Source: Xiphydria camelus (lineage: Eukaryota; Arthropoda; Insecta; Hymenoptera; Xiphydriidae). Taken from it: DNA of 64,000 nucleotides. The notes below the pieces were generated by a model. It ran no database searches. It saw only the letters and a list, made by a program, of their open reading frames with translations, and was not told where the DNA came from. Of this stretch, positions 3,501 through 50,480 are shown piece by piece (positions within the stretch are counted from its first letter, which is position 1; each line of letters begins with the position of its first letter). The stretch is from positions 21,188,977-21,252,976 of the forward strand of contig OY783193.1 in assembly GCA_963678675.1 (NCBI GenBank). Reading direction: 5' to 3'. Both the position numbers and the translations under genes were made by a program.

Positions 3501-4044
3501 GGTAAAGCTGCTTTGGGTGCCGGGTCATACCGGAATCCAGGGCAACGAGAAAGCCGACGAGCTGGCTCGGTTAGGCTCTTCGCAGCCTAACCCTGAGGCC
3601 AGACGGGTAATAGGTGTCTTGATGGGGACTGTGAGGGAGGCGGCTCATAACTGGATTCAGAGCCGCTTCGCCGACCTTTGGGCACAGTCTCCAGGCATGA
3701 GACACACGAGGGCCCTCTTCAGGGGACCCTCTAGGAAGCTGAGCACCACGCTGTTGAACCTGGATAGGACCCAGCTTCGATTAGTCCTGGGGCTGGTCAC
3801 TGGGCACTGGCTCATGAGGAAGCACCTGAAGAACATGGGCCTCTGTACGGAGACCCTATGCCCCAGGTGTGGTAATGAGGAGGAGACTCCTCTGCACGTA
3901 CTGGCACATTGCGAGAGGTTGATGGCCCTAAGGACTACTATCCTGGGGCCCCCCTTTGTTGATGACGTCGATATTGGGGACATCAGGGTGAATGGGCTTC
4001 TGCGCCTTGCGAGTGAGGCCGACATACCCCGATATCACGTTTGA
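532..4044 (+). pseudogene. LINE ORF2: endonuclease, reverse transcriptase, RNase H, broken
   Basis: Successive frames give one decayed polyprotein. Endonuclease: VALIQEPWILGKGRIAGL (about 625-690), a CDAN/H/WG block near 970-1000, and an SDHR-type motif near 1195. Reverse transcriptase: KSPGVDG and FIPKPGK blocks (1865-2035), a D-I-E-G-A-F catalytic motif near 2270, and the second catalytic motif Y-V-D-D at 2677-2688. RNase H-like block: LLWVPGHTGIQGNEKADELA near 3510-3570. The C-terminus has a C-x2-C-x8-H-x4-C knuckle. The two halves of the RT are separated by the MITE at 2509-2647. Frameshifts and stops near 795, 1145, 2390, 2730 and 3020 make it non-functional. Confidence 0.85.
2509..2647. 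mobile_element. 139-bp Harbinger-type MITE inserted in LINE RT
   Basis: The termini are inverted repeats starting GGGCCGGTTGTACAAC, and the 3-bp TTA is duplicated on both sides (2506-2508 and 2648-2650). Almost the whole element folds back: the segment GCCGACAAGTCCGCTTT recurs inverted around a short loop near 2575. The 3-bp TTA/TAA target and GGGCC ends match the other Harbinger-type elements here (10469, 28593). It splits the reverse transcriptase between its two catalytic blocks and is therefore younger than the LINE. Confidence 0.8.
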
Positions 4045-4130
4045 TTGGGCTGTTCCAGCTAGGGCCCGGGCACAATGGTCCAACAGGACTGAGCGCCCGG
4101 TTTATGCCACCCATCAATTCATTCAATCAT

Positions 4131-4757
4131 TATTAAAAAGCACAGATTATTAAAGTAAATGAAAGACAATCAATTAATGTAGGATGAATAAACATTCATA
4201 TAATTATTTATTTATTTATAATTATTTATTTATATTTATTTCTTGCATTATTAATATCAATTTGCATCTATGCAAGAATATTTAACAAAAGATACAATCA
4301 TAAATTTAGAAAAATGAGAAAAAAATAATAAAATTATAAAATCTTATTTATTCAAGCTCTATCTTAATGACAGGAAAAGCAATATACATTTATTTTCATC
4401 AAACTTCATATGAACACCAATAGTATTAATATTCTTAACCACAGGAGCGTACAGCAGATGAAGACTCGAGGACACCGACCGATTAACGAAGTTAAGCAGC
4501 GAAAAGTGCGGACACTAGTTGGATGGTGACCGCTCACGATGAAAAGATATACGTCAGACCTAACCTTTTAGAACCGTCATTTTTTACGTCATCACAACGT
4601 ACGGTAGAACGTCATTATGACGTGATTTTTCTGACGTCGTGTGGATGTGCAATTAAGCCGTCTTTGCGACGTTAAAATGACGTCATATTTTTCGTCATCT
4701 GACGTCAGAACTGACCTTCAAAAAACGTCATTTCGACGTTAGTGTGCTACCTGGGTA
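4131..4757 (+). mobile_element. 5S-bearing TIR element, copy 0 (right half)
   Basis: About 627 bp matching the right half of the fuller copy at 4920-7210: the AT-rich interior (AAAAAGCACAGATTATTAAA onward), the 5S-like block and the TGACGT-rich subterminal zone, ending in GTGTGCTACCTGGGTA. The left half is absent because the LINE abuts at 4126. No protein is encoded. Confidence 0.7.
4473..4534 (+). pseudogene. 5S rRNA-derived segment, copy 0
   Basis: Contains GAAGTTAAGCAGCG, the box A region of 5S rRNA genes, followed about 20 bp later by TTGGATGGTGACCGC, a box C-like block with one base missing compared with copy 1. These are the internal control elements bound by TFIIIA in true 5S genes. 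Only the middle of a 5S gene is present, so it cannot make 5S rRNA. Whether it still drives RNA polymerase III is unknown. Confidence 0.6.
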
Positions 4758-5134
4758 CCGACGCTTGCTCTAAAACTTACATCTCCCATTTTCTAAAAAG
4801 TGCCAATCGTGTGTAATGATTTGTTCCTACTTTTATTTCAATCTACTTTTAGAATAGCATTTCTGGTCCAATATGTACTCTGCAAATCTGGCATATGCAC
4901 ATAAGCATGCATAGGTATGTACCGAGGTAGCACACTGACGTTAGAATAACATCTCAGACGTCATTTTTTGGTCAGTATAGGGTTTCAGACGTCAATTGTC
5001 GTAATATTAACGTCACAGAGACGTCATATTTACGACGTACCTTGGACGTCAAAATTAAAAGTCTTTTTGACGGAAATTTTCTGTCATTTTTAATGATGAA
5101 CGAGACTTAGAAAAATTTCGATCTCCTGCATATA

Positions 5135-6433
5135 CGAGGGTGAATCAAATATTAACCGGAATTTTGTTTCAAACATTTTAATGGTACATGAAATACAAAT
5201 TTGAATACATCTTATTTTTCTACATAATCTCCTCTCTTATTTACACACTTTTCCCACCGGATCGGAAGTTTTTTAATTCCTTCATCAAAAAATGAAACAG
5301 GTCGTGTCAGTAACCAATTGCGCACAAACGTTTCTACACCTTCGTCGTTCTCAAAGTGGTAACCTCCCAATGCTTCTTTAAGTGGCCCAAACATGTGGTA
5401 GTCACATGGCGACAAATCGGGACTGTAAGGGGGGTGTTCAAGTGTTTCCCAGTGCATTACGTGCAATTTTTCTTGAGTCAATGCAGCTGTGTGTGGTCGA
5501 GCGTTGTCATGAAGCAAAATCGCACTTCGGATAGGAATGCCTCGCCTTTTTTGTCGATAGGCAAGTTTCACTGCATCAAGCAGTTGGCAGTAGTATTGAG
5601 CATTAATTGTACGGCGTTCATGAAGAAAATCAATCAGCAGTACGCCTCTGGAATCCCAGAAAACTGTTGCAAGAACTTTCCCTGCAGAAAGACGGGTCTT
5701 GGCTTTCCGCGGTGCTGCCTCTCCAGGTTTTCGCCACTCCATGCTTGCTCGCTTTGACTCCGGGGTGTAATGGTGCACCCATGTCTCATCGCAGGTTACA
5801 ACATGTCCCAACCAATCATTCCCCTCTGCTTGATATCGTGCCAACAGCCTTTCACAAACGGCAAAACGGTTTGCTTTCTGATCTTCCGTCAAAAGGCGAT
5901 GAACCCATCTTGCACACACTTTTCGGTAACCCAAATCATCTGTAATGATTGATTGAGCACTCCCGTACGATATTCCGACATGTGTAGCAATTTCCAATAC
6001 TGTAAGGTGGCGGTCACCTGTAATCAGCTCACGAATTGCACGAATATTCGCCTGATTGATGCTCGTCCTTGGTCGGCGTGCATGGGTCTCGTTCTGTACT
6101 GTCTCTCGGCCATCTGAGAATTTTTTGTGCCAGTCATAGACTTGGGTCTTTGAAAGTGTTTCATCGCCGAACTGTGCAGATAGTCGACGACAAATTTCGG
6201 AAGGTTTTACGCCTTCCCGCGTCAAAAATTTGATAATAACGCGTTGCGCAACAGACGTGTGCACCTCTTGCTCAGACATTATGCTACTAATAGTTCATTG
6301 ATTCTGCCGCGCCAAACCGACTTGTCCCCCTCCTCTTGGCATCCCTACCTAATATATATTGAGACGCCGCGCCACTCCCATTGTCTATGGCGCGCTAAAC
6401 AGAAAATTCCGGTTCATATTTGATTTACCCTCG
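5135..6433 (-). mobile_element. Full-length mariner element
   Basis: About 1.3 kb with inverted termini CGAGGGTGAATCAAATATTA and its complement at 6420-6433, flanked by TA on both sides (5133-5134, 6434-6435), the standard Tc1/mariner target. It sits in the middle of the 5S-bearing element, whose related copies at 14430 and 62710 lack it. It contains one uninterrupted transposase frame on the minus strand, so it is a candidate for a recently active copy. Confidence 0.92.
5212..6279 (-). CDS. Mariner transposase, intact (355 aa)
   Basis: DD34D transposase of the Tc1/mariner superfamily, which cuts its own element out and pastes it at TA sites in nuclear DNA. Residues 1-130 form the paired helix-turn-helix DNA-binding region (SKTQVYDWHKKFSDGRE at about 43-59). 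The catalytic triad is complete: D164 in CDETWVHHY, D258 in LLHDNARPHTA and D293 in YSPDLSPCDYHMF, with exactly 34 residues between the last two. The 355-aa length is normal for the family. The start codon lies about 155 bp inside the element end, leaving room for a short 5' leader. No stop or frameshift is present. Activity is inferred from an intact frame plus matching termini. Confidence 0.93.
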   Translation of the reverse strand: MSEQEVHTSVAQRVIIKFLTREGVKPSEICRRLSAQFGDETLSKTQVYDWHKKFSDGRETVQNETHARRPRTSINQANIRAIRELITGDRHLTVLEIATHVGISYGSAQSIITDDLGYRKVCARWVHRLLTEDQKANRFAVCERLLARYQAEGNDWLGHVVTCDETWVHHYTPESKRASMEWRKPGEAAPRKAKTRLSAGKVLATVFWDSRGVLLIDFLHERRTINAQYYCQLLDAVKLAYRQKRRGIPIRSAILLHDNARPHTAALTQEKLHVMHWETLEHPPYSPDLSPCDYHMFGPLKEALGGYHFENDEGVETFVRNWLLTRPVSFFDEGIKKLPIRWEKCVNKRGDYVEK

Positions 6434-9666: not shown

Positions 9667-10736
9667 GTTTTGATGTGAAACATCTTATGCCGCGCTTCGG
9701 GGGTGAGACCGGCTGCTCGTGAAACGTCGCTGGAGTGGCTAAATACGCTAAGGCCAGGCGAACGTTGAACATTGCCTCTATATCTATATCTATTCTAACT
9801 CGGGACGCATCGGCTCTCTCCGCCACGACTCGATGGTCCCCTTTCACCGAGCCCTAGCTTAACCTCACCCCACGCCCACTTACTACTACACGATCACTGT
9901 ATCGGTGTACGAAGCAGTATTTACCCTCATTAATGAAAGCATGAGGATTGATTGATCAATGGTTAGCACGTTTAAAAATAACATTTAAATACCGTTTGTA
10001 TAGGAAAATTGTTAGATGTGAAACATCGAAATTCTTCTTTGTAGGAAGTATGCAATAGGAAGGATGGACCACGCTACCGTTGAAAAAATACGTGCGCCAG
10101 TACGCGCATTTGTATTTATGACTGTGATACCATTAAACGGTATGAACCGTTGTGTCGAATTCCGTTTATCGCGAGACGGAACAGCGACTGATGGCAGAGT
10201 TAAGAGAGAGTAAACTAAATGCGCTTTTTGAATTAGACACAACGGTTTGTACCGTTTAATAGTATCACAATTATAAATACAAATGCGCACTGGCGAACGT
10301 GTTCTTTCGTTTTCAGCTAGATTTACTCAAGTGGACACAGCATTGAGAACAATCTAGCGGGAGTTAGTCTAGAATCTCGGTTGAGAAAAATAAATCTAGC
10401 TAGATTGTGCAGTGGATACACGATAACAATTTACTGCCAGAGAAATTTCAGCCTATTTGACCGGCTAAGGGCCGGTTTTACCAACACGGTATAAACGCCG
10501 TATAGCGCTATACTGAGAATAACCTGTACGCAAGCGTTTTACCACGATGGTATAAGTCTGGAATAGGATAAACTTTGGAATAAATGCAGGGATAGCTTAT
10601 CCGGCAGTTTCAGCGCTGGATAAGCTAGCTATCCTCGGGATAACCTAACTTTTTGTTTGCGTCTTTATTATTCCGTGACAGAATCATAATAATTGTTATT
10701 AGTTGTGAATAAGAGTTGATTGGTGTGCCAGTTATC

Positions 10737-11068
10737 AAATCATCATCTGATGATGAAATTGACGTCTTACGAAGAATGAGAAATGCTAGGAAAATACGTG
10801 CCCGGTAAGTAAATAAAGGATACCTATACCTACTAATTTATAACCAATATCTAATACAAAACTATTCCAGAGTTGACTATTTCGAAGAATACAATGGTTG
10901 TAGAATTCTTCACTTGATTTCGTTTGGAAAAACAAACCTGTCAGAGATTATTGGGACAAATACGACATCGCATTGCTTCGAGGTCGCCAAGTAATGCAGC
11001 AATTCAGCCAGCAACAAAATTATTGCCGACTTTAAGATTTCTTGCTTCGGGATCAATGCTAATTACTG
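10737..11068 (+). pseudogene. Truncated Harbinger transposase start
   Basis: An acidic first segment (SSSDDEIDVLRRMRNARKI) ends at a donor-like GTAAGT at about 10804. After a short intron, VDYFEEYN and then, after a one-base frameshift near 10915, LLGQIRHRIASRSP and LLPTLRFLASGS follow. These match the N-terminal part of PIF/Harbinger nuclease-type transposases. The frame stops near 11068, where captured sequence begins; the catalytic DDE part is missing. The inverted copy at 22150-22210 has the same frameshift, so the defect predates the spread of these two copies. Confidence 0.6.
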
Positions 11069-11109
11069 TAGGTAATCGTTTTTATCATAATGTTAAAACT
11101 TTTAATTAG

Positions 11110-11562
11110 TGATTATTATATGCCGCCACCTCTGCAACCTCCAACGACTCCTAACATCGCGAGGAGAGCTAGTTTACAGGGCTACAAGTTCATCGATCGG
11201 CATAAACCGCCACTGATCTCCCAGAAATCAATGGGCGACATACTGAAAAACATCAACAAAGTCAAAATGAAACTCGTCACAAGGTACGATTAAACAATTT
11301 TATCGCGGTAAACTTTTTATTCGCCAGGAACAAAGAGGAGTTTCGCATTGTCAGAATGTCGTGGCTGCGAAAGATTGATTTTGTTCACAGTGGGCTTTTA
11401 AACGTGTTTTTCAGATCGCCGGGTGGGAGACCTTTGCGAGCCAAACGAGAAAATAGCTCTTGCAACGACCTTCAAGAGATCTTACGGAAACGATATATCG
11501 CAATGCAATCGCCGCACAGTAAAAATTCCACCGCGACGTTGACGTTCGATAATTCGTTCTAG
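11110..11562 (+). pseudogene. Captured exons resembling mitochondrial fission regulator (MTFR)
   Basis: Exon A 11110-11283 reads a proline-rich start (MPPPLQPPTTPN) and SMGDILKNINKVKMKLVT. The donor AG/GTACGA opens an intron of 131 bp that ends TTTTTCAG/A at 11414. Exon B 11415-11562 continues in phase as RSPGGRPLRAKRE and ends FDNSF-stop. A short Pro-rich stretch, then M-x-D-I-L-K-x-I-N-K-V-K followed by R-S-P-G-G, is the conserved signature of the MTFR family, regulators of mitochondrial division in animals. The last exons and a 3' UTR appear to have been taken as genomic DNA. Upstream exons are absent, so it is a gene fragment; an acceptor-like TTTTAATTAG precedes exon A and could allow fusion to upstream transposon exons. 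Confidence 0.6.
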
Positions 11563-12500
11563 ATTAAGAACTCGATGATACTGAAGTTCTCTGGATCGCA
11601 GCAATCGCGTCGGACGGTGCTCCGAGGAACGGCTATTGTAGCCTTCCTTTCCACGCGTGAGATTGAATCATGATTATAATTTTATCTGAGTCAGAGCTTT
11701 GGAGAATCAAAATTAATAGATCTCTCTTCTTTTTTTTTATAAATGAGTCTTTCTCTGCGAGGTAATTTCGCACGACACATTTTAGATTATAGTTCTTTTT
11801 TAATAGGAGGATAGAAGCTCATAGAAACGTCGGGAAAATTTTGTTTTCTCTCTTCGCTCTTTTACTCAGAAAATACAAGTTTAAATTTAAAATTGACGCA
11901 CGCGGGTCTCTAATCGCGAGAATCTCAACGGTATCCAATAATATCAACCAAAGAAGTCATCTACCATTGCATTGTCTTCTATAAGTAACATTTAAATTTA
12001 TCTAGGTAGACATTATACCTTTCTTCAATTCGCGTGATTGCAGAGTTTTCAGGAGCAGAAGTGATACATCCGTCGTACGATGTAGAATATGAAAAAATTT
12101 TAGATTTGCATTGATACACTTTTGTAAGATACCTCGGCATTAGACATCAAGTCGTACAACGCTCTTTGTATACTCTTTAGATAGGGTCGCGTATACTTAA
12201 AAAAACGATAACATTGTACCGCTCTATGTAATCTCAGAGTAATGTCACCGCGTGATAAATCTTAAGTTGTAGCGATTTAAAAGTTTATAGATTTTAGAAT
12301 ATATTTTGTCCGATACGAGATTTGGATCAAATGGTGCAATTTTACGTTGTAATTACTATTATTGTGTGACGACCCTTATAATTTTTTGAGACTGAACACA
12401 TTCTTGTTGGTGAGATATCGAATGTTTGGACGTGTTTTGTACCTGATGCTTTTATCGACGACTCGAAAATAAAAGTTATTATTACGAAAATATAAATATA
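11563..12500 (+). other. Captured 3' UTR-like sequence
   Basis: AT-rich non-coding sequence directly after the mtfr-like stop codon, with an AATAAA hexamer at about 12468 shortly before the right transposon arm begins. Shared with the inverted copy as far as about 12145. I infer that it is the 3' UTR of the captured gene. Confidence 0.45.
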
Positions 12501-12983
12501 TTGTTATAGATATCTTTTATTTACCGCGGGCACGTATTTTCTTTGGATTTCTGATTCTTGGTAATACGTCAATGTCATCATCAGATGATGATTAAAAAAC
12601 TGGTACATCAATCAACTATTTCAAAATTAATAACAATTTACCACAACGATCAGGTTATGATTATGTCATGAAAGAATAAAGACGTCAAAAAAACAAGTTA
12701 GGTTATACTGAGAATAACAACTCCGAATTTCATTTATCGCGCCGGAACAGCTGTCAAAACGACCAAATGTCATGCGCAGTACGTACTTCTTACTACCAAC
12801 CTAAAAATAATTTTAGATGACCAACGCTTATACCTGGAATAGTTATCCCAGGCAAACTTGGAGCTGGTAAAACGCCTGCGCTTTATACCAGGTATAAAGA
12901 AGAGAGAGAAAGAGAGAGAGTATAAATTTATCCTCGGTATACTTATTCTATGTATAACTTGGCTTTGGTAAAACTGGCCCTAA

Positions 12984-28592: not shown

Positions 28593-28718
28593 GGGCCGGT
28601 TTTACCAACAGGTATAAACGCGGTATAGCGCTATATTGAGAATAACCATAAGGCTTATTGCTGGTCATTCTCAGTACAGCGCTATACCGCGTTTATACCG
28701 CGTTGGTAAAACCGGCAC
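28593..28718. mobile_element. 126-bp Harbinger-type MITE
   Basis: Ends GGGCCGGTTTTACCAAC and GTTGGTAAAACCGGCAC, with TTA duplicated at 28590-28592 and 28719-28721. It is almost entirely palindromic (GGTATAGCGCTATA arms). The termini are nearly those of the mtfr-carrying element, so the same transposase could have moved both. Confidence 0.82.
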
Positions 28719-39595: not shown

Positions 39596-39895
39596 TGTAG
39601 AAGTGCGTGCGGTTCTGTGTATTTAGGCGAGCGTATCGGGTGATTGCGTAGTGCGTGGCAGGGCGTCTATGATTCCAGGTATTTAGGCGAAGGTATCGGG
39701 TGATTGCGTAGTGCGTGGCAGGGCGTAAGGATGTGGAATGAAACAAAGGCGTGATTGAGAATTGGTAAGAGTGAACGAGAGGCATTGTATGGTTTAGAGG
39801 GAGTCAGATGAGCGAAGCAGGAAACGAGCAGGCAGTCTTAAACGGAGAACGGTCGAGTATAGTTCGAAGTGTCGCAAAATCGGAATGATCCTACA
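39596..39895 (+). repeat. 5' LTR
   Basis: Starts TG, ends CA. Contains an internal tandem duplication of about 60 bp built on GTATTTAGGCGA and ATTGCGTAGTGCGTGGCAGG. Differs from the 3' LTR at 39611 (T/C) and about 39672 (A/G). Confidence 0.95.
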
Positions 39896-39899
39896 AAAT

Positions 39900-39917
39900 T
39901 GGGGGCTCGTCCGGGAT
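39900..39917 (+). promoter_or_regulatory. Primer binding site, tRNA-Pro type
   Basis: TGGGGGCTCGTCCGGGAT, four bases after the LTR, is the 18-base complement of a tRNA-Pro 3' end, the primer used by many retroelements for minus-strand DNA synthesis. Confidence 0.85.
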
Positions 39918-40179
39918 CCCGCCGGTTTTGCGAATTATTAACGGTGGTGATCATCAAGCGTGGGGCGCGGTAGGCAGACGGCCACACGGGGAAAAATCGT
40001 GCACTACGCGACGTGATTGTAGTGACAGTTGTTAAATGTTAGACGGACATTTGACAATTAAGGGCGAACGAATTCACGTTTATTTTACTACGTGACGTGA
40101 TTGCAGTGATAAATTGTTAAATATTAGACGGATATTTGACAATCAAAGGCGAACGAATTCATTTTTATTTTGTTTAAAA

Positions 40180-43100
40180 ATGAGTGACCACGGTGAAAGC
40201 GCACTCCATGACGTGGAGTCATTGACGGTGGATGAGTTAAAGCAGAAATTAAAAGAACTGAGTATCACTACCAAGGGTACCAAGGCGGATTTAGCTCGAA
40301 GATTACACGAAGCACTGCAAGCATTAGCGTTGCAGAATCCGGATCCAAAGGAAAAATCGGCAAGTGTCAGTCACGGTGGACTTCAAGGCGACAAGCAGAC
40401 AAAAGAAGATAATTCCAAAGGTGATGGTGAAAACGAAGATGAACGCGGTTTAGCAACCCTGTCAGTGGCTGCTCTGAAAATTCAGTTACGTGGTTTAAAA
40501 TTGCCAGCTACGGGTAAAAAAGCGGAACTGGTAAAACGATTGCAAGAGGCGTTACAAGCTGCGGAAGAAGACGGTGATATTGAAGAAGAAGAAGAAGATA
40601 ACAATGAAGAAGACGATGATAGTGAAGAAGAAGAAGTTCAAGAACAAAGTGATGGTGATCCGGGTGAAGGTGCAAATTTACGCGTCCTGGAACAGTTGGC
40701 TCGACAATTGCGTGGTAAACCTAAGTTGAATTTCAAAGACGTTACTGATACCATTGAGACATTTAGTGGTGATAAAGGTGAAAATATTCGCCAGTGGATC
40801 TTAAATTTTGAAGAAACAGCGGAAATGGCGAACTGGACTGACGTGGAAAAAGTGGTAAATGCTAAAAGGAAGCTCCAAGGTTCAGCAAAATTATTTGCTC
40901 GCTTCGAATGTCGTGCCAAGACCTGGGTGAAGCTTAAAAAGACGTTAATTGGTGAATTCGCGAAGACTACGAATAGCAAACAGGTCCACAAGCAGTTAAG
41001 TTCGACTAAGAAAAAGTCCGACGAGACGTATCAAGCCTATGTATATCGTATGCTGGAGATAGCCAGCCATACTGATATTGAAGTTGAAGCTCAGATACAA
41101 TATATCATTGACGGTATTCCTGATGAAGAGCATCATAAAACGATTCTCTACGCGGCTACTACGATTAAAGAATTGCGAAAAAAATTGCAACAGTATGAGA
41201 TACAGAAAGCAAACGACAAAAGAGCATCACAGGTAAAGCAACAAAGCAGTGATAAAAATAAGAAACCTACTGAAACACCAGATGCAACGAAAGATAAAGT
41301 GAAACGATGTTTTAATTGCGGAAGTAAAAGTCATGTGTCAAACAATTGCCCTGATAAGGATAAGGGACCAAAATGTTTTAACTGTGATCAATATGGACAC
41401 GTAGCTCCAAAGTGTACACAGCCAAAAAAGGTTGAAAGAAGCGGTACCACGAAAAATAATTCTACTAGTGCCAAGGTGAGAGTCGATGCAGTAAAATCAA
41501 GACAATCAACGGATAAAAAGACGTATAAAAAAGTTGAAATTATGGGAACAGAAGTGACAGCCGTAATTGATCCAGCCAGTGATATTCATTTAATTCGTGC
41601 CAGCCTCTATTTGCAATTGGGAGCTCCACCGTTGGAGCCAAAAGTAGTGTCGTTCAACGGTGTTGGTATACCTGTTTCGCAGTATACCATGGGACGTTTC
41701 ATAACTGAGCTGACGATTGACGGAATGACATTCAATTTCGCATTTGATGTCGTTCCAGATCATTATCTTGGACATAATTTACTGATTGGTGGCGAATTGT
41801 CCGAATTTGCAGAAGTTACGTTGAGAAATAAACAAGCAACGGTGAGCCAGTTGAAAGCTGAAGAAACTACAGTACAAACCAATGATCCGGGGTGGAAAGA
41901 GGTATTGAACATCAATGTTCTTGATGAACCGGACGATGAATACGAAGTGTCATTAAATCACCTGGTGGATTCAGAATTAAAGGACAAAATGCGCGAGTTG
42001 ATTGAAAACTATGAACTGATAAAGACGAAAAACAGTGGTGTAAAATTACAGATAATGCTGACCGATAACATCCCAGTGCATCAACATCCCCGTCGCTTGT
42101 CAGTGAGTCAAAGAGAAATAGTCAACCAGATCATCGCCGATTGGGTGAAAAGAGGAATAGTGCGGCCAAGTACGTCGGATTACGCAAGTCCAATCGTATT
42201 AGTGGAAAAGAAGAATGGTGAATTTCGATTGTGTATTGACTATCGCATGTTAAACAAAAAAGTGATCAGGGATAGGAATCCGCTTCCCCTGATTGAAGAT
42301 CAGCTTGATAAACTGCAAGATGCTGAAGTGTTTAGTACACTGGATCTTAAGGATGGATTTCTCCAGGTACCCGTAGAAGAAGGAAGTATTAAATATACAG
42401 CTTTCGTTGTACCCGACGGACATTGGGAGTTTTGCAGAATGCCGTTTGGTTTCGCCAACTCACCAGCGGTATTCCAGAGACACGTAAGAGTAGTCTTTAA
42501 AGAGCTAATCGAGAAAGGTATCGTGCATAATTATCTAGATGATTTAATTATTGCATCCAAGACAATAGAGGAGAATGTACAAAAATTAGCTACGGTGTTG
42601 AAAACAGCGAGCGAATACGGTCTGGTAATCAACTGGAAGAAGTGCCAATTTTTAGTCACCCAAGTTGAATACTTGGGGTATCTCATCAAAGCTGGACGTT
42701 ATTACCCATCAGAAAAGAAGACAGAAGCAGTGGCTAAATTTCCAAAACCAAAAACCGTTAAACAAATTCAGAGTTTCTTGGGCCTCACTGGATATTTTCG
42801 TAAATTTATATTCCAGTTTGCTATTCGTGCACGTCCGTTATCAAATTTGCTAAGAAATAACGTCAAATTTGAGTTTGGTCCTGACCAAGAAGCTGCGTTT
42901 GAAGATTTAAAAGGTGCATTGATAGATAGACCAGTACTGCGACTGTACCGTGTTGGTGCAGAGAAGGAGCTCCACACTGATGCATGTATGGGTGGTCTCG
43001 GAGCGATTTTACTACAGAGAAACCCAGATGACAACTTATTTCATCCAATCTACTACGCCAGCTGGAAGACCAGTCTAGCTGAAGAGAAATATACAAGTTT

Positions 43101-44685
43101 CGAATTAGAAATGTTAGCTGTGGTCAAAGCATTAAAGAAGTTTAGAATTTATTTACTAGGAATCCCCTTCAAGATTATAACTGATTGTCGTGCCTTTGCC
43201 ATGACCATGAAGAAGAAGGACACCTGTCTACGAGTGTCACATTGGGTGTTACTGCTAGAACAGTTCCAGTACACTATTGAGCACCGACCAGGAACGGCAG
43301 TGAAACACGTCGACACACTGAGTCGCAACCCTGTGACAGTGTTATGCATTTACCAAAACCAGGACACATTGATTGTTAAAATTCAGAGAGCTCAACAAAA
43401 GGATTCAGAACTTCTAAAATTGATCGGAAATATTAAACAACAAAACAGTCAAGAATTCAAGTTGAAAGGGCAAAAAGTTCTTTATCGAGAAAGCAACGGC
43501 ATTGAACAGCTGGTAGTCCCCAGGAGCATGCAGCGTGAGGTCATTCACCAAGCTCATGACCGAGGACACTTCGGGTGGAAGAAGACAGAATATTCATTGA
43601 TGCAAGAATTTTGGTTCCCCAAAATGCGTGAAAAAATCCAAAAATATATTGAAAATTGTATACAGTGTTTGTTGGCAGAAAAGAAAAAGGGAAAAGCTGA
43701 AGGCTGGCTCAATCCAATTGGAAAAGGTGACAAGCCATTGGACACCTATCACGTGGACCACTTGGGCCCCATGCCGTCTACAAAGAAAAGTTACAACCAC
43801 CTATACGTCGTCGTGGATGCCTTCACGAAATTTGTGTGGATTTATCCAACGAAGTCAACGACTGCTGAGGAAGTTATTACACGTATGAAGAGACAAGCAG
43901 TTACATTTGGTAACCCACAACGAATTATCTCAGATAGAGGAACTGCTTTTACATCCAACGCGTTCAAGGAGTACTGCAGTGAGGAGAAAATCGAGCATGT
44001 ATTAATTACAACTGGAGTTCCAAGGGGAAATGGACAAGTAGAACGTATAAATCGTGTCATTATACCCATTCTGACAAAATTATCCATTGAAAAACCAATG
44101 GAATGGTATAAACAGGTTGATACAGTACAAAAAGTGATTAATTCAACATTCAATCGAAGCATCGGTAAAACGCCCTTCGAATTACTGATGGGAGTGAAAA
44201 TGAAACTTAAAGATGACCCAACACTACGGGAAATAGTAGACAAAGAAATCGTTGAAATCTTCGAAGAACAACGAAGTACTCTCCGAGATGAAGCACGTGC
44301 AAATTTACTAAAAGTACAAGAAGAAAATCGCAAGACATTTAACAAAAAGCGCAAGAACCCAAAACAGTATAAAGCCGATGATCTTGTGGCAATTCAACGA
44401 ACACAGATGGCACCTGGGCTGAAACTATACCGCAAATTTCTAGGCCCTTACCGAGTTGTCACAGTACTAAGGAATAATCGCTACCTGGTAGAGAAAATCG
44501 GTACACACGAAGGTCCAGCTAAAACAAGTACGTCAGCAGACCACATGAGACCCTGGTCAAATAACATTGACAAGCTGTTCGGCTGGGAAGATGATGTAGA
44601 ACCAGAGGATGACGACTACGCAGACTATATGGAGGAAGCAGGCAGTATCGAGGACGATACTGAAGAACAGGATGGCCGAGTGTAG
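40180..44685 (+). CDS. Gag-Pol polyprotein with two SAP motifs (1501 aa)
   Basis: Single uninterrupted frame. I start at ATG 40180 (AAAATGAGT context) instead of the in-frame ATG 40114, because the latter adds a leader taken from the duplicated 5' region. Order by residue: SAP-like helix-extended-loop motifs at about 13-45 and 93-127, an acidic stretch, a Gag core, two CCHC knuckles (CFNCGSKSHVSNNC, then a second, about 376-412), protease near 462 with DPAS where D-T/S-G is usual, reverse transcriptase with Y-L-D-D at about 785, RNase H (LHTDACMGGLGAIL, about 931), and integrase with H-x3-H...C-x2-C (about 1124-1165) and D, D, E with 35 residues between the last two (about 1191, 1251, 1287). 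Gag and Pol are fused without frameshift. The stop TAG is the third to fifth base of the 3' LTR. Confidence 0.95.
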   Translation: MSDHGESALHDVESLTVDELKQKLKELSITTKGTKADLARRLHEALQALALQNPDPKEKSASVSHGGLQGDKQTKEDNSKGDGENEDERGLATLSVAALKIQLRGLKLPATGKKAELVKRLQEALQAAEEDGDIEEEEEDNNEEDDDSEEEEVQEQSDGDPGEGANLRVLEQLARQLRGKPKLNFKDVTDTIETFSGDKGENIRQWILNFEETAEMANWTDVEKVVNAKRKLQGSAKLFARFECRAKTWVKLKKTLIGEFAKTTNSKQVHKQLSSTKKKSDETYQAYVYRMLEIASHTDIEVEAQIQYIIDGIPDEEHHKTILYAATTIKELRKKLQQYEIQKANDKRASQVKQQSSDKNKKPTETPDATKDKVKRCFNCGSKSHVSNNCPDKDKGPKCFNCDQYGHVAPKCTQPKKVERSGTTKNNSTSAKVRVDAVKSRQSTDKKTYKKVEIMGTEVTAVIDPASDIHLIRASLYLQLGAPPLEPKVVSFNGVGIPVSQYTMGRFITELTIDGMTFNFAFDVVPDHYLGHNLLIGGELSEFAEVTLRNKQATVSQLKAEETTVQTNDPGWKEVLNINVLDEPDDEYEVSLNHLVDSELKDKMRELIENYELIKTKNSGVKLQIMLTDNIPVHQHPRRLSVSQREIVNQIIADWVKRGIVRPSTSDYASPIVLVEKKNGEFRLCIDYRMLNKKVIRDRNPLPLIEDQLDKLQDAEVFSTLDLKDGFLQVPVEEGSIKYTAFVVPDGHWEFCRMPFGFANSPAVFQRHVRVVFKELIEKGIVHNYLDDLIIASKTIEENVQKLATVLKTASEYGLVINWKKCQFLVTQVEYLGYLIKAGRYYPSEKKTEAVAKFPKPKTVKQIQSFLGLTGYFRKFIFQFAIRARPLSNLLRNNVKFEFGPDQEAAFEDLKGALIDRPVLRLYRVGAEKELHTDACMGGLGAILLQRNPDDNLFHPIYYASWKTSLAEEKYTSFELEMLAVVKALKKFRIYLLGIPFKIITDCRAFAMTMKKKDTCLRVSHWVLLLEQFQYTIEHRPGTAVKHVDTLSRNPVTVLCIYQNQDTLIVKIQRAQQKDSELLKLIGNIKQQNSQEFKLKGQKVLYRESNGIEQLVVPRSMQREVIHQAHDRGHFGWKKTEYSLMQEFWFPKMREKIQKYIENCIQCLLAEKKKGKAEGWLNPIGKGDKPLDTYHVDHLGPMPSTKKSYNHLYVVVDAFTKFVWIYPTKSTTAEEVITRMKRQAVTFGNPQRIISDRGTAFTSNAFKEYCSEEKIEHVLITTGVPRGNGQVERINRVIIPILTKLSIEKPMEWYKQVDTVQKVINSTFNRSIGKTPFELLMGVKMKLKDDPTLREIVDKEIVEIFEEQRSTLRDEARANLLKVQEENRKTFNKKRKNPKQYKADDLVAIQRTQMAPGLKLYRKFLGPYRVVTVLRNNRYLVEKIGTHEGPAKTSTSADHMRPWSNNIDKLFGWEDDVEPEDDDYADYMEEAGSIEDDTEEQDGRV

Positions 44686-44980
44686 AAGTGCGTGCGGTTC
44701 CGTGTATTTAGGCGAGCGTATCGGGTGATTGCGTAGTGCGTGGCAGGGCGTCTATGATTCCGGGTATTTAGGCGAAGGTATCGGGTGATTGCGTAGTGCG
44801 TGGCAGGGCGTAAGGATGTGGAATGAAACAAAGGCGTGATTGAGAATTGGTAAGAGTGAACGAGAGGCATTGTATGGTTTAGAGGGAGTCAGATGAGCGA
44901 AGCAGGAAACGAGCAGGCAGTCTTAAACGGAGAACGGTCGAGTATAGTTCGAAGTGTCGCAAAATCGGAATGATCCTACA
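44681..44980 (+). repeat. 3' LTR
   Basis: 300 bp, same length as the 5' LTR. It supplies the gag-pol stop codon. No clear polypurine tract precedes it; only the purine-rich GAAGAACAGGATGG is present. Confidence 0.95.
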
Positions 44981-48487: not shown

Positions 48488-50480
48488 TTTGATGTGAAAC
48501 ATCTTATGCCGCGCTTCGGGGGTGAGACCGGCTACTCGTGAAACGTCGCTGGAGTGGCTAAATACGCTAAGGCCAGGCGAACGTTGAACATTGCCTCTAT
48601 ATCTATATCTATTCTATATATAGATATAGAGGTAACGGTCACCCTGCGTCTCCTCACTGAACTGCGTCTCAACGTTCGCCTGGCCTAACTCGGGACGCAT
48701 CGGCTCTCTCCGCCACGACTCGATGGTCCTCTTTCACCGAGCCCTAGCTTAACCACTTACTACTACACGCTCACTGTATCGGTGTACGAAGCAGTATTTA
48801 CCCTCATTAATGAAAGCATGAGGATTGATTGATTATTGGTTAGCACGTTTAAAAATAACATTTAAATACCGTTTGTATAGGAAAATTGTTAGATGTGAAA
48901 CATCGAAATTCTTCTTTGTAGAAAGTATGCGATAAGAAGGATGGACCACGCATCCGTTGAAAGAATACGTGCGCCAGTGCGCATTTGTATTTATGACTGT
49001 GATACCATTAAACGGTACGAATCGTTGTGTCGAATTCCGTTTATCGCGAGACGGAACAGCGACTGATGGCAGAGTTAAGAGAGAGTAAACTAAATGCGCT
49101 TTCTGAATTAGACACAACGGTTTGTACCGTTTAATAGTATCACAATTATAAATACAAATGCGCACTGGCGAACGTGTTCTTTCGTTTTCAGCTAGATTTA
49201 CTCAAGTGGACACAGCATTGAGAACAATCTAGCGAGAGTTAGTCTAGAATCTCGGTTGAAAAAAATTAATCTAGCTAGATTGCAGTGGATACACGATAAA
49301 AATTTACTGCCAGAGAAATTTCAGTCTATTTGACCGGCTAAATAGATAGTAAGAGTCTAGCGAGAGTAATAGGCGCCGGGTCGCAAGCGAAGGGCCTCGA
49401 CCGCGTGCTCAGATTTCAGGAGCCTCGCGGGAGGCAACAGAAACCCTCTGCCTTTTATGCTCTCCTCGGGTAAAGTGCAGACCCGCAGTAAATTCGACTA
49501 TTGCGGTGCACGTGTACTTTTTCGGGGATAGCACCAACCGAACGGCGCTGAATCTGCGTACTCTCTCGGCGGCAATTTTCATGCTCCAGCTCGGTGGTTT
49601 CGAAGAATTTCCTTCTCCCACCATGCATAGAAAAGTCATATCGATATAGGTCAAAAGTTCATAAATGATGAGATAATAGTAATTGAAACTTCTTCGCTGG
49701 CAAGTAAGTTTAGCCTCATATGGTACGTATGTGTGTACAATCTATAATACATCACGATTGTAAGTAGATATTTGATAAGTCAAAAAAACATATGAGGCTA
49801 AACTTATTCACCAGGAAAGGAAATTTAATCGCCATTATCTTATTATCTATGAACTTTAGGCCCACATCGATGTAAGATACTTTGTTGTAGATAAAAATAC
49901 GTGTGTGTATAATAACATATAATATAAAACAGTTTTTATAGAAAAATTGTTAGATGTGAAACATCGAAATTCTTCTTTGTAGAAAGTATGCGATAGGAAG
50001 TATCGACCACGCATCCGTCGAAAGAACACGTGCGCCAGTGCGCATTTGTATTTATGACTGTGATACTATTAAACAGTACCGATGGTCGAGTTAAGAGAGA
50101 GTAAACTAAATGCGCTTTTTGAATTAGACACAACGGTTCGTACCGTTTAATAGTATCACAGTCATAAATACAAATGCGCGCACTGGCGCACGTGTTCTTT
50201 CGACGGACGCGTGGTCGTTCCTTCCTATCGCATACTTTCTACAAAGAAGAATTTCGATGTTTCACATCTAACAATTTTTCTATAAAAACTGTTTTGTATT
50301 ATATGTTATTATACACACACGTATTTTTATCTACAACAAAGCATCTTACATCGATGTGGGCCTAAAGTTCATAGATAATAAGATAATGGCGATTAAATTT
50401 CCTTTCCTGGTGAATAAGTTGGGCCTCACATGTTTCTTTGACTTATCAAATATCTATTTACAATCGTGGTATATTTTTAT
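48488..50480 (+). repeat. Repeat X, copy 3 (uninterrupted)
   Basis: Left part matches 9667-10468 and continues without a gap into the part matching 12984-13710. The Harbinger target is empty: GACCGGCTAAATAGATAG, single TAA at 49339-49341. The right part is a palindrome, 49745-50475, whose arms (for example AATAACATATAATATAAAAC against its inverse) exceed 300 bp and which carries a nested fold-back at 49930-50285. Confidence 0.8.
49745..50475. repeat. About 730-bp palindrome at the right end of X
   Basis: ATCACGATTGTAAGTAGATA at the left pairs with TATCTATTTACAATCGTGGT at the right. Arms run to about 50070 and 50150 around an asymmetric centre of some 80 bp. Confidence 0.75.

What the first reader, a model, noticed from the sequence alone, without database searches (positions are those of the whole stretch)
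10469..12980. Harbinger-like element has captured intron-containing exons of an mtfr-like host gene
Seen: GGGCC-type termini, TAA duplication, truncated Harbinger transposase in the left arm, an inverted copy of that start in the right arm, and between them two exons with a GT/AG intron, stop codon and AATAAA. Known: the MTFR family carries the IL-K-x-IN-K-VK ... RSPGG signature seen here. Inference: a Pack-type DNA transposon mobilised a genomic host segment, which is much less documented in animals than in plants. Both copies keep the exons open.
Basis: partly seen in the sequence, partly recalled or inferred. Interest (0 to 1): 0.88.

Follow-up and report, generated by a model that had tools for sequence, protein, structure and literature searches.

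The report
Transposon carrying captured host gene piece
In a wasp- or sawfly-like insect, a cut-and-paste jumping gene has picked up the last two exons, the intron between them and the tail of a mitochondrial-fission gene, and at least forty copies of the jumping gene now carry that stretch around the genome.

Summary
The finding is real and larger than reported. Window 10469-12980 is a 2,512-bp non-autonomous PIF/Harbinger element with a TAA target duplication; the same host repeat is empty at 49339-49341. Bases 11122-12490 are host DNA: the end of exon 3, the intron, exon 4 and the 3'UTR of MTFR2, whose intact parent gene lies on another contig (C29). At least 40 elements carry the segment; 28 of 29 full-length copies have matching 3-bp duplications, and 18 of 29 have flanks unlike any other copy's. 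A complete 6.4-kb relative (C20) has an uninterrupted transposase exon, the MTFR2 segment (with a deletion of its own) and a Myb-like gene. A diverged relative without MTFR2 shows the two sides of the segment about 25 bases apart. The host DNA therefore most likely entered between the two genes of a full-length Harbinger; later deletions made the small form, which multiplied. My first model, a hybrid of two neighbouring elements, failed. The captured frame drifts neutrally (16 of 51 changes synonymous, 29% expected). Animal Pack-TIRs are known, and the C. elegans Harbinger Turmoil-1 is a direct precedent. Copy number and surviving intermediates are unusual; one survey reported no Pack-TIRs in insect reference genomes.

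The parts
10469..12980 (+). Non-autonomous Pack-Harbinger element, copy 1 (2,512 bp)
   Evidence: Inverted ends; TAA on both sides and empty paralogous site; 29 distinct full-length copies in the genome
10466..10468 (.). Target site duplication TAA, left
12981..12983 (.). Target site duplication TAA, right
10469..11076 (+). Harbinger 5' end: TIR, 5'UTR, transposase exon 1 (to 10804), intron (10805-10870), start of exon 2 (from 10871; frameshift and stop), ending at an internal deletion junction
   Evidence: 87.7% to the transposase-bearing element L044, whose exon 2 has PF13359 at E 1.4e-34
11079..11121 (+). Remnant of Harbinger intergenic DNA just left of the captured segment
   Evidence: Element position 611 onward resumes in L044; most of this stretch is also in the MTFR2-free relative L067
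11122..12490 (+). Captured host segment of the MTFR2 gene (element positions 654-2022)
   Evidence: Colinear with parent locus L043 3590-5243
11122..11283 (+). 3' part of MTFR2 exon 3
11284..11414 (+). MTFR2 intron 3, GT...AG
   Evidence: short database ORFs P0001-P0004 join the last exon at the same boundary
11415..11562 (+). MTFR2 exon 4 with stop
11563..12490 (+). MTFR2 3'UTR with AATAAA at 12468-12473
   Evidence: 90% to parent
12491..12721 (-). Inverted piece of a Harbinger 5'UTR, exon 1 and intron 1 start, joined on the right of the host segment
   Evidence: 76.5% to the element's own left arm; continuous with the right end in the MTFR2-free relative L068; not at this place in the complete element L065
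12722..12980 (+). Harbinger 3' end with right TIR
   Evidence: 90% to the 3' end of the complete two-gene element L065
20928..22607 (-). Copy 2 of the element, right part missing
   Evidence: 98.6% over 1,682 bases
49339..49341 (.). Empty insertion site (single TAA) in a third copy of the host repeat
28593..28716 (+). 124-bp miniature element with the same type of ends and TTA on both sides

Best explanation
The element is a high-copy, non-autonomous Pack-Harbinger descended from a full-length two-gene Harbinger that took up a stretch of its host's MTFR2 gene, at least about 1.6 kb, as genomic DNA. Shown: the intact four-exon parent gene; a complete 6.4-kb element with uninterrupted transposase exon 2, MTFR2 DNA and a Myb-like gene; a diverged relative without MTFR2 in which the two sides of the segment lie about 25 bases apart; a 4.7-kb form with transposase and MTFR2 but no Myb gene; and the 2.5-kb form, in which most of the transposase is missing as well. 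Inferred: the host DNA was copied into a break between the two convergent genes by gap repair with template switching; a second repair or recombination with an L068-like element replaced the Myb half with the inverted exon-1 piece plus 3' end; a further internal deletion removed most of the transposase; and transposase supplied in trans spread the small form by cut and paste with 3-bp duplications. The captured exons travel as a neutral passenger. The complete element is a sister form, not the direct ancestor, because its MTFR2 segment has a deletion of its own.
For: Parent found by an N-terminal query that hits only C29 (4 candidates, 2 matched stretches); intact 231-aa frame in four exons. 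Element 654-2022 aligns to parent 3590-5243 with intron and 3'UTR; the largest gap, 217 bp, is a palindromic insert in the parent. TSDs match in 28 of 29 distinct full copies, TAA or TTA (L003 reads GTA/TTA, and L004 matches once two changed terminal bases are allowed for). 40 elements span positions 700-1900. Flanks of 18 of 29 full copies show no similarity to another's. L044: TSD TAA, transposase to its stop, MTFR2. L065: TSD TCA with unoccupied flank copies nearby, transposase frame 99% to L044, MTFR2 to parent 5406, Myb_DNA-bind_5 E 5.7e-20. L067 lacks MTFR2. Neutral drift: 32 nonsynonymous, 16 synonymous, 3 stop of 51 distinct changes, synonymous share expected 0.288, p 0.65.
Against: The pre-capture comparison rests on one diverged relative (L067, 85% over the transposase part) that itself lacks the Myb gene, and its right-side match is short (27 bp, E 1.4e-5). 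L065's captured segment lacks element positions about 1396-1751 and is altered at the start of exon 4, so it is not the direct ancestor. About 72 bp next to the segment in L065 are of unknown origin. In the tree, L038/L044 lies outside both supported subfamilies, but the order of the three branches is unresolved. No transposition was observed; a start ATG for transposase exon 1 was not established (L044 has GTG where I first assumed ATG). L066 has a broken transposase. The exon 3 part diverges more from the parent (23 of 161) than exon 4, intron or 3'UTR (6-9%), which plain neutral drift does not explain. 11 of 29 full copies share repeat DNA in their flanks, three pairs right at the insertion point. 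The copy count is a lower bound.
Confidence: 0.82

Rival explanations
1. Two-element hybrid, as proposed for Pack-CACTA: two Harbingers flanking the gene lost their inner ends and transposed as one unit.
For: The right arm carries an inverted, diverged 5' piece, as if from a second element; the model is in print for plants (passages).
Against: The complete element L065 holds MTFR2 DNA between its two genes, with a normal 3' end and no inverted piece there. The same fused right arm exists in L068, where no MTFR2 matched in the 2.1 kb fetched.
Confidence: 0.08
2. The captured exons are a domesticated or selected gene: the element encodes a short MTFR2-like protein kept by selection.
For: 38 of 45 rows have an open frame; splice sites GT and AG are present in all 45 rows; dN about 0.07 is below dS about 0.31 against the parent for the window copy.
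Against: Changes within the family fit neutrality (16 synonymous of 51, p 0.65). The frame differs from conserved MTFR2 residues at 9 of 56 columns, against a median of 1 in 65 genes. Low dN against the parent is expected from constraint on the parent branch alone. The transposase-bearing L044 has a stop in the captured frame.
Confidence: 0.04
3. The segment came through RNA (retrocopy or capture of unspliced transcript), since the right junction of the small form lies 17 bases after AATAAA.
For: Position of junction 12490 relative to 12468-12473.
Against: The intron is retained, there is no poly(A), and L065 continues about 160 bp past that point of the parent.
Confidence: 0.01
4. Horizontal arrival: the element brought MTFR2 exons from another species.
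For: DNA transposons can move between species (recalled).
Against: The segment is 84-90% identical to the host's own gene, gaps included, even in the 3'UTR, while the host protein is 83% identical to its nearest named relative.
Confidence: 0.02
5. Coincidence: transposon ends lie around the only mtfr locus.
For: None found.
Against: Parent on another contig and at least 40 copies.
Confidence: 0.001

Closest known systems
Turmoil-1 of Caenorhabditis elegans (PMC2572040; part 1 of 2 of the text read)
   Same: A Harbinger with transposase that took up two host exons with their intron (rsp-2) as genomic DNA; the captured part is described as not under purifying selection.
   Different: Capture in long ITRs, on both sides; one full and eight partial copies; 205-bp and 131-bp fragments. 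Here the capture is internal, about 1.4 kb in the small form, and at least 40 elements carry it.
Animal Pack-TIRs (Tan et al. 2021, PMC8277862; abstract, sections 7 and 9 and passages read)
   Same: TIR element enclosing non-TE genomic DNA whose source lies elsewhere; multicopy cases show distinct TSDs.
   Different: 370 cases in 100 genomes, none in insect reference genomes; only four multicopy (three frog, one alligator); median captured size 224 bp; mostly hAT and TcMariner.
Ssk-FB4 of Drosophila melanogaster populations (same paper)
   Same: Multicopy Pack-TIR in an insect that captured most of a gene.
   Different: Three loci, one of them tandemly duplicated, 9-10 bp TSDs, putative function under positive selection; here a Harbinger, apparently neutral, at least 40 copies.
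Plant Pack-TYPE elements, including Harbinger-PIF (PMC8903248, PMC13317346, PMC8616336; passages)
   Same: Transduplication of gene fragments by TIR elements.
   Different: Plant systems; the hybrid-formation model reported for Pack-CACTA does not fit here.

Membership tests
PIF/Harbinger | DDE_Tnp_4 transposase | tested here: met
   L044 exon 2: PF13359 E 1.4e-34 and PF04827 E 1.2e-11. The window copy keeps only the start of the gene.
PIF/Harbinger | Second gene with Myb/SANT-like domain (recalled as typical) | tested here: met
   L065 minus strand, PF13873 E 5.7e-20 on two joined exon readings; absent from the window copy.
PIF/Harbinger | 3-bp target duplication, TWA | tested here: met
   28 of 29 full copies TAA/TAA or TTA/TTA; the complete element L065 has TCA.
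PIF/Harbinger | Terminal inverted repeats | tested here: met
   Arms of 17 nt (one flanking base included), 94% complementary.
Pack-TIR / transduplication | Host gene fragment between the TIRs of one mobile unit | tested here: met
Pack-TIR / transduplication | Parental copy elsewhere and not embedded in the same TE | tested here: met
   Parent on C29; element DNA matches the 10-kb parent locus only over the captured segment.
Pack-TIR / transduplication | Genomic DNA capture, not a retrocopy | tested here: met
   Intron retained, and DNA downstream of the poly(A) signal in L065.
Pack-TIR / transduplication | Repeated transposition with distinct flanks | tested here: met
   18 of 29 full copies with flanks unlike any other's; 11 share repeat DNA.
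MTFR2 | Pfam Mito_fiss_reg match | tested here: not met
   No hit for the 103-aa fragment; two full-length relatives hit. The fragment is a piece of the gene, not a complete member.
MTFR2 | Sequence relation to full-length MTFR2 | tested here: met
   Best E 1.2e-42, 76% identity; host parent gene.
Two-element hybrid (Pack-CACTA type) | Left and right ends from two neighbouring elements at capture | tested here: not met
   L065 and L068.
Active transposon | Current excision or insertion | not testable with these tools
   Low divergence only (median 1.07% and 0.62% within subfamilies).

The most novel reading that the evidence does not exclude
A complete two-gene Harbinger has made a host gene's 3' segment part of its own body, between its convergent genes, where the captured 3' end may serve the element (transcription end or shielding from silencing). 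Its many derivatives, which share a 62-base identical stretch with MTFR2 in the window copy, may also feed small RNAs against the host gene.
Probability: 0.1. Interest if true: 0.75.

Novelty: new member of a known kind. Interest (0 to 1): 0.55.

Why it matters
How TIR transposons acquire host genes in animals is mostly inferred from single-copy cases. Here one genome holds the parent gene, a relative without the capture, a complete element with it, an intermediate and at least 40 elements with the segment. The order of capture, deletion and amplification can therefore be read from sequence and tested in sister species. It also adds a high-copy case in an insect; one survey of animal genomes found no Pack-TIRs in insect reference genomes (PMC8277862).

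Tried and rejected
Two-element hybrid capture: my first model from the inverted exon-1 piece in the right arm; rejected after L065 and L068.

One insertion duplicated with its host repeat: I first took copies 1 and 2 for this, since both sit at the same base of the repeat. Flank differences (18 of 659) exceed those of the element (22 of about 1,680), and the tree puts copy 1 (L001) in a group with L004, L009 and L014 (support 93), copy 2 (L040) outside that group, and a third copy at that base (L031) in the other subfamily. Separate insertions into a hotspot, or gene conversion, fit better; unresolved.

Splicing of transposase exon 2 into MTFR2: rejected, as 'GTAATCG' is a deletion junction.

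Retrocopy, horizontal transfer and domestication: see rivals.

Searches that gave nothing: Pfam on the fragments; viral contigs (44 pattern matches, no relative); transposase fragment in the protein database (22 candidates, none at E<=0.001) and in PDB sequences (two chance-level hits); the element's arms and transposase start against 20 other Harbinger loci L045-L064 (no match). A recount with the 3'UTR alone, and a search for the origin of an ORF-like piece in L065, did not complete. I first judged L065's exons closer to the parent; one search shows this for the exon 3 part (90.9% against 86.4% in L044) but not for the exon 4 part (83.3% against 87.0%), so I dropped it.

Full report
OBSERVATION. 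The region 10469-12980 starts GGGCCGGTTTTACC and ends GGTAAAACTGGCCC, with TAA on both sides; the inverted arms (17 nt, one flanking base included on each side) are 94% complementary. The surrounding host repeat is present without the element at 48685-50071; the joined flanks with a single TAA align to it at 95.8%. Within the element I read exon 11120/11122-11283, intron 11284-11414 and exon 11415-11562 with stop. A second copy on the minus strand at 22607-20928 is 98.6% identical but broken off at element position 1682.

IDENTITY OF THE EXONS. The 103-aa fragment has no Pfam match. With a padded query that admits full-length proteins, 65 of 80 candidates matched at E<=0.1. All 65 rows carry the precomputed domain PF05308, and the named organisms are Hymenoptera (taxonomy recalled); the best is Cephus cinctus at 76% identity and E 1.2e-42. 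In the two full-length relatives that I scanned, the best Pfam stretch lies at residues 5-40, in the part not captured; a second stretch was counted but not placed. Four short database ORFs (P0001-P0004) join the last exon at the same boundary. The last-exon sequence of P0003 equals that of the Apis protein P0055, and P0004 differs from Bombus P0043 by one residue. I read them as intron read-through, which places the intron where the real gene has it.

PARENT. An N-terminal MTFR2 query hits only contig C29 of the window's own genome (357 Mb, 38 contigs). The gene has four exons at L043 3001-3188, 3305-3450, 3538-3751 and 3920-4067, and an intact 231-aa frame; its nearest named relative is Cephus (83%, SH-aLRT 89). 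The captured part is element 654-2022 against parent 3590-5243, with exon 3 end, intron, exon 4 and 3'UTR in order. The largest gap is a 217-bp palindromic insert present only in the parent; the intron also has smaller gaps.

COPY NUMBER AND MOBILITY. The genome search listed 148 matches, a lower bound. After fetching the places, 29 distinct full-length copies remained (the rows of L007 duplicate L035 and were dropped), and 40 elements span positions 700-1900, the window copy included. Target duplications match in 28 of 29, TAA or TTA; L003 reads GTA/TTA, and L004 counts as matching after two changed terminal bases. With 300 bp on each side, 18 of 29 have flanks unlike any other copy's; 11 share repeat DNA, and three pairs (L001/L031, L028/L035, L010/L023) share it at the insertion point. 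Two subfamilies have median pairwise divergence of 1.07% (24 rows) and 0.62% (12 rows), and 2.4% between them. The captured 3'UTR differs from the parent by about 7%, so capture is older than this amplification.

INTERMEDIATES. L044 (C14) is a 4.7-kb element, TSD TAA, with transposase exon 2 open for 329 aa to its stop (PF13359 E 1.4e-34) and the MTFR2 segment; the captured frame has a stop there. It also holds a nested foldback element and a stub repeat of the captured exon-3 start. The window form equals it with the stretch between element positions 608 and 611 missing. L065 (C20) is a complete 6,406-bp element, TSD TCA, with unoccupied copies of its flank nearby. It has the transposase (99% to L044, no stop in the frame), MTFR2 DNA running to about parent 5406 but lacking element positions about 1396-1751 and altered at the start of exon 4, a Myb/SANT-like gene on the other strand (PF13873 E 5.7e-20) and a right end 90% identical to element 2254-2512. 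It is therefore a sister of the small form, not its direct ancestor. L066 (C29) is similar but broken. L067 (85% to L065 over the transposase part) has no MTFR2 and no Myb gene; its left context ends about 25 bases before a 27-bp match (E 1.4e-5) to L065 4041-4067, on the far side of the capture.

HARBINGER IDENTITY. The transposase piece of the window copy alone had no database match; a recalled human HARBI1 sequence matched at 41% over 44 residues, E 1e-4 for that single comparison. The family call rests on L044 and L065.

RIGHT ARM. Element 2023-2253 is an inverted Harbinger 5' piece. It is not to the right of MTFR2 in L065 but is joined to the same 3' end in L068, where no MTFR2 matched in the 2.1 kb fetched. 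The fused arm therefore probably came from an L068-like element when the Myb half was lost. This removed my first model of two elements flanking the gene.

SELECTION. Of 45 rows, 38 have an intact frame (one of the 45 is a second cut of the same element). Inside the subfamilies (41 rows; L007, L038 and one row of L015 left out, one row with a gap set aside) 51 distinct coding changes are 32 nonsynonymous, 16 synonymous and 3 stops; the synonymous share expected without selection is 0.288 (p 0.65). The window copy differs from conserved MTFR2 residues at 9 of 56 columns, against a median of 1 in 65 genes; only P0069 has more. Against this, dS to the parent (0.27-0.38 in the rows printed) exceeds the intron and 3'UTR divergence (0.07-0.09), and the excess lies mostly in the exon 3 part (23 of 161); I have no explanation.

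COMPARISON. Turmoil-1 of C. elegans, a Harbinger with transposase, carries two rsp-2 exons with their intron in its ITRs (PMC2572040). Tan et al. report 370 Pack-TIRs in 100 animal genomes, four multicopy, none in insect reference genomes, plus Ssk-FB4 in fly populations, and favour gap filling for single-copy and fork switching for multicopy cases (PMC8277862). The present family belongs with these. What stands out is the copy number, the size of the segment, its seat between the two genes of a complete element, and the surviving series of forms. I found no report of this family in the listings of my paper searches, which cover only an open-licence library.

CHANGE AFTER CHECKING.

Noticed in passing
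39596-44980: An LTR retrotransposon with 300-bp ends 99.3% identical (39596-39895 and 44681-44980) and one 1,523-aa gag-pol frame whose start carries two SAP-domain stretches (PF02037 E 6.9e-16).
   Followed up: partly
10468/12981, 22608, and L031 (C10:14057254): Three copies of one host repeat carry elements of different lineages at the same base: insertion hotspot or gene conversion.
   Followed up: partly
L028 and L035 (C20): Pack copies inserted into Harbinger exon-1 sequence, both at GACGTC|TTA; in L035 the host is another Pack copy.
   Followed up: partly
28593-28716: A 124-bp miniature element with the same terminal type and TTA on both sides.
   Followed up: no
L065 2509-2760 and L044: An ORF-like stretch bounded by possible splice sites, next to a stub repeat of MTFR2 exon 3; no Pfam match; possibly a second captured gene piece.
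   Followed up: partly
11122-11283: The exon 3 part of the capture diverges from the parent at 14% against 6-9% for the rest.
   Followed up: no
L043 4084-4304: The parent gene's 3'UTR carries a palindromic insert of about 217 bp that is absent from the captured segment, probably a later MITE insertion.
   Followed up: partly
5212-6279 (minus): A mariner transposase with an uninterrupted 355-aa frame.
   Followed up: no
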